From NCBI GenBank assembly GCA_021129445.1, contig JAJOLG010000070.1, positions 1 through 6,967 on the forward strand: a stretch of 6,967 bases of DNA, written 5' to 3'. The stretch comes from Candidatus Altimarinota bacterium. GTDB taxonomy: Bacteria; Patescibacteriota; Gracilibacteria; GCA-2401425; JAJOLG01. How positions within the stretch are numbered: the first letter of the stretch is position 1; each line of letters opens with the position of its first letter. Below are positions 1 to 6,932 of this stretch, in pieces. The notes beneath the pieces were generated by a model, which was not told the origin of the DNA, searched no databases, and saw only the letters and a list, made by a program, of their open reading frames with translations. The position numbers and the translations under genes were made by a program.

Positions 1-2040
1 ATTTAAACATAATTTATATTTTCTTGCTTCAGATAAAATTGTTCAAAATGAATCTGTTGCAAAATTTTGAAATTCATCAACATAAAGATAGTGGTCAACT
101 CTGTCCCTTTCAGGAATATTTGCACGGCTCATCGCATCAATTTGAAATTTTGTCACAAGCATTGATCACAAAAGAGATGAGTTAACTTCTCAAATTTTTC
201 ATTTTGAAAGGTTTATGATGATTATTTTTTTCTTGTCCATTGCAAATCTTAAATCAATTGAGGATTTTCTTTGTCAAAAAATATTTCTAATTGTTGCAGA
301 TGATAAAAATTGTCAAACTTTGTTTTGAATTGGTCAAAGTGCTTCTTGTCTTTGTCTGTCTTGCATTTTTCAAAACTCATCTTTCCAAAACGAAATTACA
401 GTTGGATTTTTGATTTGTTTCACTATCCAATCTCTGTATTTTGAATCATTAAATATCCTTAAAATTGAAAGCATTGTTGTTCATTCTATTTCAACAAGTG
501 CTAAAATTGCATTTCTTAAAAAATGTTCAAGTCTTGGCCCCCACGAATCTGCAAACATTTTTTTAAATACTCATAAAAGTCAATCTGCAACTGTGTCAAA
601 TTGCTCAGGATTTTTACATTCAAGCATATTAAAAGATACAGGAAAGGCAGTGTCAGATGGGTCAAAAATTACAACATCATTTACTCTGTTGCTTGGTACA
701 AATGAAATTACAGCTTCGGCTAAATCTCAATGCGGGTCAATAACTGTTACTCATTTTCATGCTTGAATATCTGAAAAAAGCATATTTTCCAAAATTGTAG
801 ATTTTCACATTCAAGTTTTTCAAATCACATAAACATGTCTTCTTCTATCGACATTTTTCATTCAAAAATATTTTGATTGTCATCTAAAATTTGTTTTTCA
901 CATCATTGTAAAATCTTCTGGATCTGTATTTTCAGGTCAAGGAAGGTTTAGCGGTGCTTCAAGTTTTTTTGAAGAAACAAAATCTAAATTTGGTAATTTT
1001 ACGGATTCCAGAGGTAAATGCCAAAGTGTAGCAAGTTCTTCGTTGTTTAAAATAAAAGGTTTTATAATTGTTCTATTTTGAAATCTTTTTAAAATATTTT
1101 TATTATTTTTACTAAATTGCCTAATTTTAAAAGAATTCAGATGAGATTGATTAAATTGAAAAAACGATGAAGTTATTTCTTTTAATTTATTTCATGCAGA
1201 TTTTTCATTTTCTTTTTTTGGGATGTAGACAATTCTAATATTTGTCTCAAATAAAAGTCTTGCCATTTTTGAATTTGATGCAATTGATGGTGTTTCGTCT
1301 GATTTATTTACTTTTCATTCAGTTTCTACTTCATTTTCTCACTCTAATTTAATAAAAAATCAATGTTTTTTTATTAAATTTTTTCATTTTAAAATCCATT
1401 CTGATGAAGCTGGTCTTAAAACAATTTGAATCCATGCTTGCTCACAAGTAGAATTTAAATTTCATAAAGCTCATAAAATTCAAGAAATTGGATCAATTGA
1501 TCAAGTTTTATCTTCAAATTGAGAATATCTTTTAATTGGGAAAATAAAATTTGTTAAAAGTCATAATTCAGCAGTTTTTGCAGTTGATAAATCCATTAAA
1601 TCTTCAAATCATTTATGATTTTTTTTCAAGGATTTTTTGTAAATTCATTTTTTTGCATAATCTTCAATTTCTTCGATTTCAATATCTGGATATGCTGAAT
1701 ATAATTGACTTTTTATCATTTCTGCATCTTTTTCTTCACAAAAAATATAAAGTCAAGTTTTTGCTCAAATATTACAAAATTCAAAAGAAATTCTATTTAA
1801 TTCTTTTTTGTAAAACCAATCAGAAAATCACAATTCTTTTTTTGAAGAATAAATTGTTGCAAAAATATTTTCCATTGCAATTGGTCAAGTTTCATTTGTT
1901 TTGTCTATCCAAATTTTTAGAGTTTTGTATTTTGTAAGATTATTTTTATGATATTTTTTTGCTAAAAAACTTCTAAAAATAAAAAATATAAATGTTAAAA
2001 AAATTGCCGATAGAAAAAAAATAATTATATAATTTTGCAT
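1..2040 (-). CDS. VirD4/TraD-like membrane-anchored P-loop ATPase, 3' end cut off by window edge (UGA = Gly)
   Basis: Probably a hexameric motor ATPase of the type IV secretion coupling-protein/HerA superfamily, which drives DNA or protein through an envelope channel. Reading from ATG 2040-2038 with UGA as glycine gives 680 residues with no UAA or UAG; the frame is still open at base 1. Residues about 4-24 form one N-terminal membrane segment. A charged N-terminal region follows, then Walker A at 407-414 (GKTGMGKS), an IDPHGDL block at 434-440, and the Walker B-like motif YLYVDEFQNF with D655-E656. The C-terminus, including the glutamine motif seen in the paralogue at 3058-5697, lies outside the window. 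About 37 of 38 glycines are UGA. The start overlaps the stop of the upstream peptidase gene by one base (TAATG), so the two are likely co-transcribed and translationally coupled. The substrate is unknown. A VirB4-type or other HerA-like role is possible. Confidence 0.85.
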
Positions 2041-2918
2041 TATTTTAAAATTTTATCTAAATAATTGTATGCAGATGAATACTTTCTAAATTTTTCTCAA
2101 TCTCAATTTCTTATACTTTTTACAATTTTTCTTTTCAAAAAAATTTTTGCAAAAATTTCTTCTCTTAATGAAAAAATTTTTTTAACCTCTTCCCAGACTG
2201 GCTTATTTATTTTTTTTATTTTTTCTTCTTGTGATTTTTTTGCTATTCTTTCATCAAATTTTTGTTTATAAATTTTTTGCAAGTAAATATTTGGATTTTC
2301 AAAAAATTTCCAAGGTGTTCTTTTTAATCAGCTGTCTGTGATTATTTTTGCATATTTTTTTCAAACATACCTAAAATGCCAAGGTTCATAATTGTAATTT
2401 GGATTTCAAATTCAATAAGATAAAACAAATCAGAATCTATCAGCATTTTCGTGAAAACATTTTGTTAATTTTGGGAAATCTTTTGGGTTTAAAAAAACTC
2501 AATGAAATCAAAAATCAACAGCAAGTCAAAGTTGATGTTCAGAGGTTCATGGAAAAGCAGAAAAATCTTTTGAATATTTTGAAAAAGTTAATTGTTGGTC
2601 ATAAAAAGAGCGGTATCAAGACCTTACAGGAATTTTTTTTCAAGTTTTTTTAAAACAAAAATCTTGAAAATTTTTTAAATCTTCAACAACAATTTTTCTA
2701 ATTTTTCATTCATTTTTTCAAGGTCTCAAAGTATAAATTCAAAATTTTTTCATCTCAACCAAATTTTTTGGATGAAAATTTTTTGTTAATTTATTTTTTT
2801 TAGTCGGTTTAAAAATCAAATGATTTTTATCATTAAAATTTTCCATAGCAAAAATTTTTTCTGAAAGAAGTCAGAAAAACAAAAGAAAAATCCCGACAAT
2901 TGAAAAAATTTTTTTTAT
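2040..2918 (-). CDS. VanY-like D-alanyl-D-alanine carboxypeptidase (peptidase M15) with N-terminal signal or anchor (UGA = Gly)
   Basis: Zinc peptidase predicted to remove the terminal D-alanine from peptidoglycan stem peptides outside the membrane. The M15 signature is complete. Numbering from 2918: RSGYRSFYDQQ, then SEHQLGLAVDF with zinc ligands H128 and D135, then EPWHFRYVG with catalytic E178 and zinc ligand H181. About 17 glycines are UGA and one is GGG. The tail beyond the core is long (about 100 residues), Lys-rich and unassigned. The first ATG is 2846-2844, but the open frame upstream encodes a typical signal peptide or anchor (KIKK, then IFSIVGIFLLFFGLL, then SEKIFA), reaching back to a TAA at 2930-2928. 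No ATG or GTG lies in that stretch. I therefore place the start at AUA 2918 (MKKIFSIVG); AUU 2927 is the alternative. TTG 2882 would cut the signal, and ATG 2846 would remove it. The family call is firm; the exact start is not. The gene is first in an operon with the ATPase. Confidence 0.85.
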
Positions 2919-2942
2919 TTTAAAAATTTATTTTTTAATAAA

Positions 2943-2973
2943 ATTATTTTGTAAAAAATTTTACAGGAGTCAA
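2943..2973 (-). promoter_or_regulatory. Candidate promoter of the peptidase-ATPase operon
   Basis: On the minus strand, TTGACT at 2973-2968 matches the sigma-70 -35 box at 5 of 6 bases. AATAAT at 2948-2943 matches the -10 box at 5 of 6, with a 19-base spacer. AAAATA at 17 bases is a poorer alternative. A/T tracts directly upstream could act as UP elements. Transcription would begin near 2936, giving a leader of only about 10-20 bases before the proposed AUU or AUA start. In such AT-rich DNA the -10 match is weak evidence; the TTGAC box is the stronger part. Confidence 0.45.
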
Positions 2974-3010
2974 AAAAAATTTTTTAAAAGCATTTAAAAT
3001 TTTTTTTGAC
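2969..3010. repeat. Inverted repeat between the divergent promoters (GTC-A8-T4 arms)
   Basis: The left arm (2969-2983) and right arm (2996-3010) are perfect 15-base inverted copies of GTCAAAAAAAATTTT, separated by 12 bases. The outer GTCAA end of each arm carries most of the -35 box of one of the two divergent promoters. The symmetry may reflect matched promoters with A-tract UP elements, or an operator for one regulator controlling both operons. The arms are mostly A and T, so part of the symmetry could be compositional. The shared GTC ends are what makes it notable. Confidence 0.6.
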
Positions 3011-3034
3011 ATAAGTGAAAATTTTTTTTTCAAT
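3006..3034 (+). promoter_or_regulatory. Candidate promoter of the 3058-5697 ATPase gene
   Basis: A perfect TTGACA -35 box lies at 3006-3011, with TTCAAT at 3029-3034 (4 of 6 matches to the -10 consensus) after a 17-base spacer. Transcription would begin near 3041, about 17 bases before the ATG at 3058. No Shine-Dalgarno sequence is visible in the A-rich leader. The -35 box faces the divergent one at 2973-2968 across about 30 bases. Confidence 0.45.
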
Positions 3035-3057
3035 GTTTAAAAGTAAAAAATAAAAAA

Positions 3058-5697
3058 ATGTTCGCAAAATTAGCCAGATATTTTTTCTACATTATACCAT
3101 GAATCCTCTGATTTTTATGGTGATTGGCAAATGATTTTTTCACAAAAGATTTTTTTCTAAGTGTTTGGAATTGGTTTATTTCATGAGATTGAGGAATTTT
3201 TGCGAATATGTTTTTTAATTCTCTTGAAATTGTTTCGTATTTTTTTGCAGTTGAAGCAGCAATTGCTTTAATACGTCTTCGGCATGATAAAAAAATTGCG
3301 AAAGAATTGGTTTATATTAAGGTTCGTTTGACAAGAGAGGATTCAAAACTTGATAATGAAAAAAGGTCAGAAAAGGATTTTAAAGAAAAGGTTTTGGTGA
3401 TGCAGCAGCTTTATCGTGCACTTTATGAAATTTGAGATATAAATATTTGAAATCAGTTTTTAACTGCGATTTGGCAAGATGATTTTGTTTCTTTTGAGAT
3501 GTTTTTAGAAAATAAAGAGGTGCATTTTTACGTTGTAACAAAGCAAAAATATCAAGATGTTATTGAAAAGCAAATTGGGTCATTTTATCCAAATGCAAAT
3601 TTTTTTATTGAAAATAAGCCTTATAAATTTAGAAAAAGATGAAATAAAGTTTGATGATATTATTTTAATATAATAGAACCATTTTGGCATAATATTAAAA
3701 TGCCAGATAAGATGGAAAATGATCCATTAAACGATATTGTAAATACATTTTCAAAGGTTGAAGAGGATGAAACTGCGGTTTATCAAGTTATTGTTCATCC
3801 ACTTGCAATGTCTGAACGGCAAAAGGAGGCGGAAAGACAAACTAAGGCATTTTTTTCAAAAAAAACTGTGAAAATAAAAATTTTTTCATGAGTTCCTGTA
3901 ATTTGATGGATTTGGAATATTTTTAAAGTTTTGGTTTCTCCATCTTCAACATGAAGGTGAAATATGGCTCCATGAGCTTTTAGTTGAGATGCTTATGTTC
4001 GTATGTTGAAAACAAAAGAGGATCATGCAAATGATATGTGAATAAAAGCATGAGATTTTTGATTTGGGACCAGTATTCGTTTTTTGGTTTCATCGAAAAC
4101 TCGTAAAAGAAATGCAGAGTTGTTAAGGTCTTTTATTGTGACAATGACAATTTTTAAAGAAGATTTTTGAAATCAGTTTGATTGATCTCGTATCATCATT
4201 ATTGAATGGTTAAATGCAATTTTGATGTATATTTGATTTCAATTAAGATTAAAAAATTTTTTTATAAAAACATCAATTTTATGTTCAAAAGAATTAGCAT
4301 GAGTTTTTCATTTTCCTGATGTAAAATACAACAGAATTTCTGTGATAAAATGGATGAAATACAAAATTTTACCTCCTCCGTCAGATATGGCAAAATCCTG
4401 AACTTTGCTGTGATATAATCATTATCGTTGAATTAAAACTCCTGTTTATATTTCAACAAAAGACAGGTCAAGACATTTCTATATTATTTGAAAATCTTGA
4501 TCTTGAAAATCGGTGATGATTTCGTATCAGGCTCGTCAAGATGCTCAAAATGGTGCTTGATTTGGTATTATTGACCCGCATGGGGATTTGATTGAGGATG
4601 TTTTGGGGTATATTCCAAAACATAGGGTTAAAGATGTGATTGTTTTTGACCCAGCCGATACAGAAAGACCAATGTGATTAAATGTGCTTGAAGCTCACAC
4701 TTCTGAGGAAAAAGATAGAGCTTCGCTTGATGCGATGGAAATTTTTATAAAACTTTTTTGAGATGAAATTTTTGGTGCTCGTATTCAACATTATTTTAGA
4801 AATGCGGCACTGACTTTGATGGATGATGAGGAAGATTGAGCGACTTTAATTGATGTTCCAAGAATGTTTACCGATGATGAATTTCAGGCGAGAAAGGTTG
4901 CAAAATGTCAAAATGCTGTTGTAAAGTCGTTTTGGGAGTGAGAAATTGCACATACTTGAGATAGAGAAAAACAAGAAATGATTCCATATTTTAGTTCAAA
5001 ATTTTGACCTTTTATTACAAATATGACAATTCGTAATATTATTTGACAAACAAAATCTGCTTTTAATATTCGTCAAATTATGGATGAGGAAAAAATTCTT
5101 TTAGTGAATTTATCAAAATGAAAAATTTGAAATACAAATGCTCAGCTTTTATGATTGATTTTGGTAAATAAAGTTGCACAAGCAGCGATGTCTCGTGCTG
5201 ATATGTTAGAAAAAGACAGAAAGCCATTTTATCTTTATGTTGATGAATTTCAAAATTTTGCAACAGATACTTTTGCTGAAATTTTATCTGAGGCTAGAAA
5301 GTATAAACTTGCACTAATTATGGCACATCAGTATATCGCTCAACTTAAAGAATGATGAAAACAATGAGAGTCAAAAATTAAAGATGCTGTATTTTGAAAT
5401 GTTTGAACTATGATGTCTTTTAAACTTTGAGCAGAGGATGCAGAGTATTTTGAAAAAGAATATGCACCAGATTTATCAGCACAGGATATTTTATGAATTG
5501 CGAATTTTAAAACTTATTGTAAATTAAATATAAATAATGCGACTTCTAGGCCATTTTCAATGTCTACAATTTGGGATCCATCTTGAAATGCAAAAATTGC
5601 GGAGATTTGTAAAAAATATTCAAGAATAAAATATTGAAGAAAGAAGGAGTTTGTTGATGAGGAAATTGAGGAAAAGTTAAAGGTTAGAAAAAAATAA
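3058..5697 (+). CDS. VirD4/TraD-like membrane-anchored P-loop ATPase, complete, 879 residues (UGA = Gly)
   Basis: Predicted motor ATPase of the type IV secretion coupling-protein/HerA superfamily and paralogue of the ATPase at 1-2040. The frame runs from ATG 3058 to TAA 5695-5697 with about 49 in-frame UGA and about 8 GGN glycine codons. Residues about 8-24 and 50-70 are hydrophobic and likely anchor it in the membrane; shorter hydrophobic stretches lie near 277-297 and 378-398. Walker A is G478-S485 (GKSGSGKS), with all three glycines UGA. D506-PHGD follows, then Walker B-like YLYVDEFQNF with D729-E730, and the glutamine motif IMAHQY shortly after. The tail is basic. ATG 3058 is the first start in the frame and keeps the first membrane segment; ATG 3208 would lose it. 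Unlike its neighbours it uses many CGT/CGG arginine codons (about 15). No relaxase or channel gene is visible, so secretion, conjugation and DNA uptake all remain possible. Confidence 0.88.
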
Positions 5698-5783: not shown

Positions 5784-6932
5784 ATGAATTATTACGATAT
5801 TTTATGAGTATCAAAAGATGCTTCTGAGGCAGAAATTAAAAAGGCTTACAGAAAACTTTCAAGAGAAAATCATCCAGATTTAAATAAATGAGATAAGGAA
5901 AAAGAAGAGAAATTTAAAAAGATTTCTGAGGCTTATGAGACCTTGTCTGATTCGCAAAAAAAAGCAAATTATGATCAATTCTGATCATCGGATTGAAACC
6001 CATTTTGATGATGAGGTTTTTGATGATGAGCATGATGAGCATGAGGATTTTGAGGTGGTTTTTGATGAGCGTGAGGTGTAGATGTTGAAGATATTTTTTC
6101 ATCATTTTTTTGATGATGACAATCAAGATATTCGTCAAGAAGAAGGTGATGACCTCAAAAATGAAGTGATTTAGAGGTAAATATTTCAATTACTTTTGAG
6201 CAAGCAATTAAATGAATTACAAAAGAATTAAATATTTCAAAATATGAAAAATGTTATTCTTGTGCTTGAAGATGAGCAAAAAATCCAAGTGATATTCAAA
6301 CATGTTCAACTTGTTGATGAGTGTGACAGGTAGTTTGACAACAAAGAACACCATTTTGAAACATTCAAATGCAACAAACTTGTCCAGCATGTTATTGAGA
6401 AGGGCAAGTTGTAAAAAATAAATGTGATAAATGTTATTGAGAATGAAGAATTAAGGAAAATGTTTCTCTAAAAGTAAAAATTCCAGCTTGAATTTATAAT
6501 TGAGCAACTTTAAAACTTGCATGAAAATGAGAAGCCTGAGTAAAATGATGAGGATATTGAAATTTATTTGTAAATGTTGCAGTTTGAGAATCAAGAGATT
6601 TTGAAAGAGATTGAGATGATATTTATGCTGATAAAAAAATCCATGTTTTACAAGCTATTTTATGAGATACTGTAAAAATTAAAACAATTTGGTGAGATTT
6701 AGATTTAAAAATTCCAGCTTGAGCTCAGGATTGAAAAATTTTTAGAATCAAAGAATATTGAATGCCAAAATTAAACAGGAATTGAGAAAAATGAAATATG
6801 TATTTGAAAATAAAATTACAAGTTCCTGAAAAATTGACAGATAAAGAGAGGAAAATGTATGAGGATTTAGCGAAAGAATCTTCGTTAAATGTAAAATCTG
6901 AGGAGAAAAATAAGTTGTTTGGGATATTTTAA
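5784..6932 (+). CDS. dnaJ: Chaperone protein DnaJ (Hsp40), 382 residues (UGA = Gly)
   Basis: Cytoplasmic co-chaperone that delivers unfolded proteins to DnaK and stimulates its ATPase. The frame runs from ATG 5784 to TAA 6930-6932 at the usual full length for type I DnaJ. The J-domain (about 1-66) has HPD at 30-32. A Gly/Phe-rich linker covers about 67-98. Four CxxCxGxG zinc-binding repeats run from C157 to about 222 (CYSCAGRG, CSTCGGVG, CPACYGEG, CDKCYGEG). The two C-terminal substrate-binding beta-domains follow. About 51 glycines are UGA and about 8 GGN. The G/F linker alone holds 15 UGA codons in 32, and both zinc-repeat glycines are UGA throughout. No CGN arginine codon was seen, unlike the ATPase gene upstream. 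It stands alone after an 86-base gap, with no grpE, dnaK or hrcA beside it. The CIRCE site upstream predicts heat-shock induction through HrcA. Confidence 0.97.

What the first reader, a model, noticed from the sequence alone, without database searches (positions are those of the whole stretch)
1..5697. Divergent module: two VirD4/TraD-like ATPase paralogues around a VanY-like peptidase
The two ATPases share IGK(S/T)G, IDPHGDL, IRNI.GQ.KS, INLSKGKIG, YLYVDEFQNFATD and LSEARKYKL, in the same order, and similar N-terminal regions. One is coupled to a secreted peptidoglycan carboxypeptidase. Two different coupling-type motors plus a wall enzyme, transcribed from one control region, suggest an envelope translocation machine, perhaps two motors acting together or on different substrates. 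In these phyla, where host-attached or predatory lifestyles are known, it could serve DNA uptake, conjugation or host contact. The function is inference; no channel, pilin or relaxase is in view.
Basis: partly seen in the sequence, partly recalled or inferred. Interest (0 to 1): 0.6.

Follow-up and report, generated by a model that had tools for sequence, protein, structure and literature searches.

The report
Paired secretion motors of ultrasmall bacteria
Two related membrane-anchored ATP motors of the type IV secretion kind sit side by side in an ultrasmall, probably host-dependent bacterium; both kinds are ancient and widespread in its phylum and have an unexpected VirB4-like front half, while the cell-wall enzyme beside them is a local feature of this genome.

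Summary

As a three-gene module it fails: of 78 class genomes, 26 carry VanY, and only the window has it beside an ATPase. As a pair of motors it stands up. A-type and B/C-type ATPases are two ancient lineages. B/C relatives match 288/288 class and 237/239 phylum genomes; at least 19 of 26 closed genomes carry both lineages. They recur adjacent, sometimes with overlapping genes (closed genomes, P about 0.002).

The ATPase domain falls on the VirD4 branch, but the N-terminal domain of B is predicted to have the VirB4 fold (Z 17.5 to TrwK), so 'VirD4/TraD-like' is incomplete. The genome has a VirB4, about 6 kb from a third paralogue. Plasmid and phage relatives lie next to VirB4-like ATPases.

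Best reading: two coupling-type motors of the patescibacterial T4SS, encoded away from its core; substrate and direction unknown. A 2025 survey counted such VirD4-like proteins; the lineages, VirB4-type domain and pairing were not described in the papers read.

The parts
1..2040 (-). ATPase A, 680 aa, C-terminus cut by the contig end: one N-terminal membrane helix (residues 4-22), N-terminal domain homologous to that of B, VirD4/HerA-type ATPase (Walker A IGKTGMGKS, DEFQN)
   Evidence: (DUF87 9e-10, TrwB_AAD_bind 4e-8); A lineage in the trees
2040..2927 (-). VanY-type D,D-/L,D-carboxypeptidase with N-terminal hydrophobic leader; stop overlaps A's ATG (TAATG). Start codon unclear (ATT-type near 2927, or TTG at 2882)
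   Evidence: (PF02557 4.6e-22); not beside an ATPase in any other genome sampled
2928..3057 (.). AT-rich divergent intergenic region between VanY-A and B; no promoter signal above shuffles
3058..5697 (+). ATPase B, 879 aa: N-terminal membrane helices (about residues 1-81), VirB4-like N-terminal domain, VirD4-branch ATPase
   Evidence: (T4SS-DNA_transf 2e-13, TrwB_AAD_bind, TraG-D_C); relatives in 288/288 class genomes
3301..4347 (+). N-terminal domain of B (residues 82-430), predicted VirB4 N-terminal fold
   Evidence: TrwK/VirB4 of R388 Z 17.5, rmsd 3.6 over 248 residues; best non-VirB4 Z 9.8
4390..5697 (+). ATPase domain of B (residues 445 to end), RecA-like with all-alpha insertion
   Evidence: VirB4 4ag6 Z 25.2, HerA 21.7, TrwB 21.4

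Best explanation
A and B are two paralogous inner-membrane motors of the patescibacterial type IV secretion apparatus. Each has N-terminal membrane helix(es), a VirB4-type N-terminal domain (predicted for B, homologous in A) and a VirD4-branch RecA-like ATPase; by homology each is expected to form a hexameric ring that feeds a substrate into a channel built by VirB4, VirB2-like pilins and divergent partners encoded elsewhere. The A and B/C lineages split before the sampled classes of the phylum diverged and are usually kept together, so they most likely act as a pair: either successive rings or alternative substrate receptors. B is a class-specific extra copy of the phylum-wide C type. The VanY protein, translated with A only in this genome, probably trims peptidoglycan peptides where the apparatus crosses the wall; other lineages have no fixed wall enzyme there. 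Shown: domain content, predicted fold, two lineages, distribution, recurrent adjacency, VirB4 in the genome. Inferred: hexamers, pairing at protein level, T4SS docking, VanY's role. Unknown: DNA or protein, export or import.
For: B/C relatives in 288/288 class and 237/239 phylum genomes. A and B/C clades both span several classes; B is nested beside C (SH-aLRT 99-100). Full-length fold of B like VirB4 TrwK; N-terminal domain alone Z 17.5. ATPase on the VirD4 side of the VirB4/VirD4 split. Adjacent or overlapping A with B/C genes in unrelated families; 3 of 22 closed genomes have two paralogues within 3.5 kb against 0.28 expected, P 0.002. VirB4 in 27 of 27 genomes of the closed set; the window genome's VirB4 passes NF045971 (368.5 against 325 bits) and lies about 6 kb from ATPase C across a 55-bp contig overlap. 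Outside the phylum, an Embleya plasmid has VirB4-like ATPase - family member - Replic_Relax - SLT+NlpC/P60 hydrolase, and Bacillus phage G has VirB4-like gp155 - member gp156. Published: the T4SS is essential for epibiotic growth in a saccharibacterium (PMC10633639).
Against: In 22 closed genomes no ATPase lies within 20 kb of virB4. Proximity to T4SS pilins is not above chance (2 of 56 within 6 kb, 1.6 expected). Neighbours of B vary between families. A T4CP homologue was reported non-essential in S. epibionticum while other T4SS genes are essential, and co-option for other functions was left open (PMC12102498). Only B's N-terminal domain was modelled, not A's. The adjacency test rests on few cases, one of which is B+C rather than A+C. 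The tree has long reference branches.
Confidence: 0.6

Rival explanations
1. The ATPases have been co-opted away from the T4SS and work as HerA/FtsK-like DNA translocases in DNA uptake, repair or chromosome handling, with no secretion channel.
For: Not linked to virB4 in 22 closed genomes; ATPase fold scores similarly against HerA (Z 21.7) and TrwB (21.4); C-type genes often lie near dnaX in other classes; in the window genome C is a few genes from dprA and virB4; T4CP reported non-essential (PMC12102498).
Against: Membrane helices plus a VirB4-type N-terminal domain; plasmid and phage relatives next to VirB4-like ATPases; T4SS pilin genes between or after the ATPases in some families.
Confidence: 0.22
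2. A and B are independent receptors that choose different substrates for one T4SS, and their adjacency here is incidental (a sub-case of the best explanation without physical pairing).
For: Usually far apart in closed genomes (17 of 22 have more than 20 kb between all paralogues); low identity between the two lineages (about 33-44%); up to four copies per genome.
Against: Overlapping or tandem genes in several unrelated families.
Confidence: 0.3
3. The contig is a remnant of a conjugative element (ICE or plasmid) with a wall enzyme.
For: The gene content resembles conjugative operons of Gram-positives; related plasmid operons exist.
Against: The ATPases are universal genes with a vertical pattern; the next gene is dnaJ; relaxases are rare in the phylum (PMC12102498).
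Confidence: 0.05
4. VanY, A and B form a dedicated three-gene machine.
For: TAATG coupling of VanY and A, and B divergent at 0.1-0.2 kb.
Against: VanY is beside an ATPase only in the window genome among 26 VanY-bearing genomes; the same-order genome G012 has no VanY match.
Confidence: 0.1

Closest known systems
VirD4-like T4CPs of Patescibacteria counted in PMC12102498 (5,713 in 2,918 genomes, 148 near virB4)
   Same: Very probably the same proteins: about two per genome, VirD4-type profile matches, far from virB4.
   Different: The passages read there do not divide them into lineages, describe a VirB4-type N-terminal domain or report pairing.
VirB4 / TrwK of R388
   Same: Predicted full-length layout, N-terminal domain plus ATPase.
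   Different: ATPase sequence falls on the VirD4 branch; fails the VirB4 profile cut-off; N-terminal membrane helices; each genome has a separate true VirB4.
VirD4 / TrwB (R388), PcfC (pCF10, CD1115 family)
   Same: ATPase sequence matches PF02534, PF10412, PF12696; membrane-anchored N-terminus.
   Different: TrwB and PcfC are 507 and 609 aa, too short for an extra VirB4-type domain of about 350 residues; here about 800 to 1000 aa.
CedB/CedD of Sulfolobales (PMC11868833)
   Same: Two HerA/VirB4-class paralogues with N-terminal domains related to VirB4's, acting in one T4SS-like system.
   Different: Archaeal; DNA import shown by genetics; CedB and CedD each carry a part of the VirB4 domain and occur where VirB4 is missing; match to the CedD model far below cut-off (24.9 against 600 bits).
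Embleya plasmid operon (NZ_CP108778.1) and Bacillus phage G gp155-gp156
   Same: Full-length family members (E 4e-108 and 4e-91).
   Different: Directly downstream of a VirB4-like ATPase, on mobile elements; Embleya adds Replic_Relax and an SLT-NlpC/P60 hydrolase.

Membership tests
VirD4-type coupling protein (T4CP) | ATPase domain matches the T4CP Pfam families above their cut-offs | tested here: met
   B: PF02534 50.2/20.1, PF10412 38.8/20.5, PF12696 27/22 bits; A (truncated): PF10412 33.1/20.5; relatives alike
VirD4-type coupling protein (T4CP) | Groups with VirD4 rather than VirB4 by phylogeny | tested here: met
   VirB4 set and VirD4+family set separated at 99 SH-aLRT; reference branches are long
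VirD4-type coupling protein (T4CP) | Canonical layout: membrane segment plus ATPase with all-alpha domain, without a VirB4-type N-terminal domain | tested here: not met
   B residues 82-430 model as a VirB4 N-terminal domain, Z 17.5
VirD4-type coupling protein (T4CP) | Links a substrate (relaxosome or effector) to the T4SS channel | not testable with these tools
   needs biochemistry; relaxase content of the window genome was not searched
VirB4 ATPase | Passes a curated VirB4 model | tested here: not met
   B 18.8 bits against 643.1 for TIGR00929
VirB4 ATPase | VirB4 N-terminal domain fold | tested here: met
   predicted model of B
CedB/CedD DNA-import ATPases | Passes the CedD model | tested here: not met
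   A 22.1 and B 24.9 bits against 600
Patescibacterial T4SS | VirB4 present in the genome | tested here: met
   G000:C22, NF045971 368.5 bits, cut-off 325
Patescibacterial T4SS | VirB2-like T4SS pilins present in the genome | tested here: inconclusive
   5 weak PF18895 matches, best E 2.5e-5, none at E 1e-5; clear in other class genomes
Patescibacterial T4SS | VirB6, VirB8, VirB3 present | not tested
VanY carboxypeptidase | PF02557 above cut-off with metal and catalytic motifs | tested here: met
   78.7/25 bits; SxHxxGxAxD and ExWH
Conserved A-VanY-B module | Synteny in related genomes | tested here: not met

The most novel reading that the evidence does not exclude
A and B/C types form one hetero-oligomeric or stacked double motor, a bacterial counterpart of CedB/CedD with VirB4-type N-terminal domains and VirD4-type engines, which moves host DNA or proteins across the contact site in nearly the whole phylum, alongside or in exchange with VirB4.
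Probability: 0.2. Interest if true: 0.75.

Novelty: new variant of a known kind. Interest (0 to 1): 0.48.

Why it matters
How epibiotic Patescibacteria exchange material with hosts is open, and their T4SS is essential in the one strain tested although its gene cluster seemed to lack a coupling protein (PMC10633639). A phylum-wide pair of motors, with a domain layout between VirB4 and VirD4, gives named genes (A, C and in this class B) to delete together; single knock-outs may have hidden the function behind paralogues. The layout also bears on how VirB4 and VirD4 diverged.

Tried and rejected
(1) Extending the contig left to complete A: the end 40-mer occurs only once in the assembly. (2) A conserved neighbourhood for B: none across families; in Peribacteria B lies in a fixed block with a 3D/peptidoglycan-binding protein, an RlpA-like DPBB protein and MltG (YceG), tempting as a 'motor plus wall enzyme' rule, but it was not tested against background and is not claimed. 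(3) T4SS pilins near the ATPases: striking in G012, G158, G065, G298 and Peribacteria, but not above chance in closed genomes. (4) Sequence search of solved structures gave only weak TrwB matches. (5) Mobile-element origin: set aside because of universal distribution with a vertical pattern.

Full report
What is there. Read with code 25 (TGA=Gly), the 6967-bp contig holds ATPase A (minus 1-2040, truncated), a VanY-type carboxypeptidase (minus, ending at 2040), ATPase B (plus 3058-5697) and DnaJ (plus 5784-6932). Named relatives of B are Gracilibacteria, Peregrinibacteria and Peribacteria genomes. A and B share 43% identity over 357 residues; their N-terminal domains are also homologous (22% identity, hhalign E 3e-15). 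VanY's stop codon and A's start overlap (TAATG), so those two are probably co-translated; B diverges from them over an AT-rich gap with no promoter signal above shuffles.

Distribution. B-like proteins match all 288 class genomes searched and 237 of 239 from the phylum; the genome itself has a third paralogue, C, on contig C47. In maximum-likelihood trees the A type forms one supported clade and B/C another, both containing genomes from other classes; B is a class-specific sister of C. Of 26 closed genomes searched, at least 19 have both lineages by tree or best match, and at least four have only a C type.

Pairing. Paralogues are usually scattered, but A lies beside B or C in unrelated families: G440 (family f114; the A start overlaps the C stop, ATGA), G346 (f77; C, a small gene, then A with a TAATG overlap), G065 (f22; A, a triple T4SS-pilin protein, C), G044 (f20; B then A in tandem). 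G041 has B and C in tandem. In 22 closed genomes with two or more copies, three have a pair within 3.5 kb against 0.28 expected at random (P about 0.002) and five within 20 kb against 1.5 (P about 0.015). This supports joint function, with small numbers.

The wall enzyme. VanY was sought in 78 class genomes: 26 have one, and only in the window genome is it next to an ATPase (against the places); none of the other neighbourhoods read contains a relative of the window's VanY. VanY-A-B is therefore a local arrangement. In Peribacteria B sits among other wall-acting proteins (DPBB, 3D/peptidoglycan-binding, MltG), and in G002 next to an M23 peptidase, but this was not tested against background.

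Fold. AlphaFold2 of B (mean pLDDT 73) matches full-length VirB4 TrwK of R388 (Foldseek); the ATPase domain matches VirB4 (Z 25.2), HerA (21.7) and TrwB (21.4). The N-terminal domain folded alone (pLDDT 78, pTM 0.76) matches the TrwK N-terminal domain with Z 17.5, rmsd 3.6 over 248 residues, while the best other fold reaches 9.8. By sequence the ATPase is VirD4-type, and in a tree with reference proteins the family lies on the VirD4 side. So the proteins combine a VirB4-type N-terminal domain with a VirD4-branch ATPase. The A N-terminal domain was not modelled.

Secretion context. A VirB4-like match exists in all 40 class genomes searched (in one, G016, it is weak enough to be a VirD4 cross-match) and in 27 of 27 genomes of the closed set, and T4SS pilins in nearly all. 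In the window genome contigs C47 and C22 share an exact 55-bp end inside one ABC-transporter gene, placing ATPase C about 6 kb upstream of dprA and virB4. In 22 closed genomes, however, no ATPase lies within 20 kb of virB4, in line with the 2025 survey (148 of 5,713 near virB4; PMC12102498). Beyond the phylum, full-length relatives occur on an Embleya plasmid (VirB4-like ATPase, family member, Replic_Relax, SLT-NlpC/P60 hydrolase) and in Bacillus phage G (VirB4-like gp155, then gp156), and without a recognised VirB4 nearby on a Bacillus plasmid and in small phages. This is the best positional evidence that the family works with VirB4.

Mechanism. I favour a pair of T4SS motors anchored in the cytoplasmic membrane, the VirB4-type domain docking the ring and the VirD4-type engine moving substrate. 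Ced in Sulfolobales gives a precedent for two HerA/VirB4-class paralogues in one T4SS-like DNA importer (PMC11868833), but sequence membership there fails, and direction and substrate are unknown here. The main rival is co-option of these motors for DNA handling without the T4SS, which the lack of linkage to virB4 and the reported dispensability of a T4CP leave open.

Novelty. VirD4-like proteins in this phylum are known (PMC12102498). The two ancient lineages, the VirB4-type N-terminal domain and the recurrent pairing are, as far as the papers read show, new details of a known kind of machine.

Noticed in passing
L185, L186, L187, L188, L189, L190, L191, L193 (downstream of the C-type ATPase): A conserved protein of about 170-300 aa without any Pfam match lies just downstream of the C-type ATPase in eight families outside the class, often followed by dnaX.
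   Followed up: partly
L045 and about 40 Peribacteria loci among L100-L163: B sits in a fixed block: PKD-domain protein, T4SS pilin, methionine aminopeptidase-like gene, 3D/peptidoglycan-binding protein, RlpA-like DPBB protein, ATPase B, small gene, MltG.
   Followed up: partly
L242:7546-12720, L036:5710-10192, L177:7416-13504: T4SS-pilin-like genes, some with three pilin repeats, directly beside the ATPases in code-25 and same-order relatives.
   Followed up: partly
L252:1-4085, L253:1770-4034, L254:2007-4163: Bacillus and Geobacillus phages carry full-length relatives of these motors; phage G has a VirB4-like protein and a family member side by side, of unknown use to the phage.
   Followed up: partly
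L174:4024-7101 (G000:C22): dprA directly upstream of virB4 in the window genome, about 6 kb from ATPase C.
   Followed up: no
window 5784-6932: dnaJ directly downstream of ATPase B; a DnaJ-like gene also lies a few genes from B in L048.
   Followed up: no
window 2882-2940: The VanY reading frame has no ATG or GTG before its leader; an ATT-type start or TTG at 2882 would be needed.
   Followed up: no
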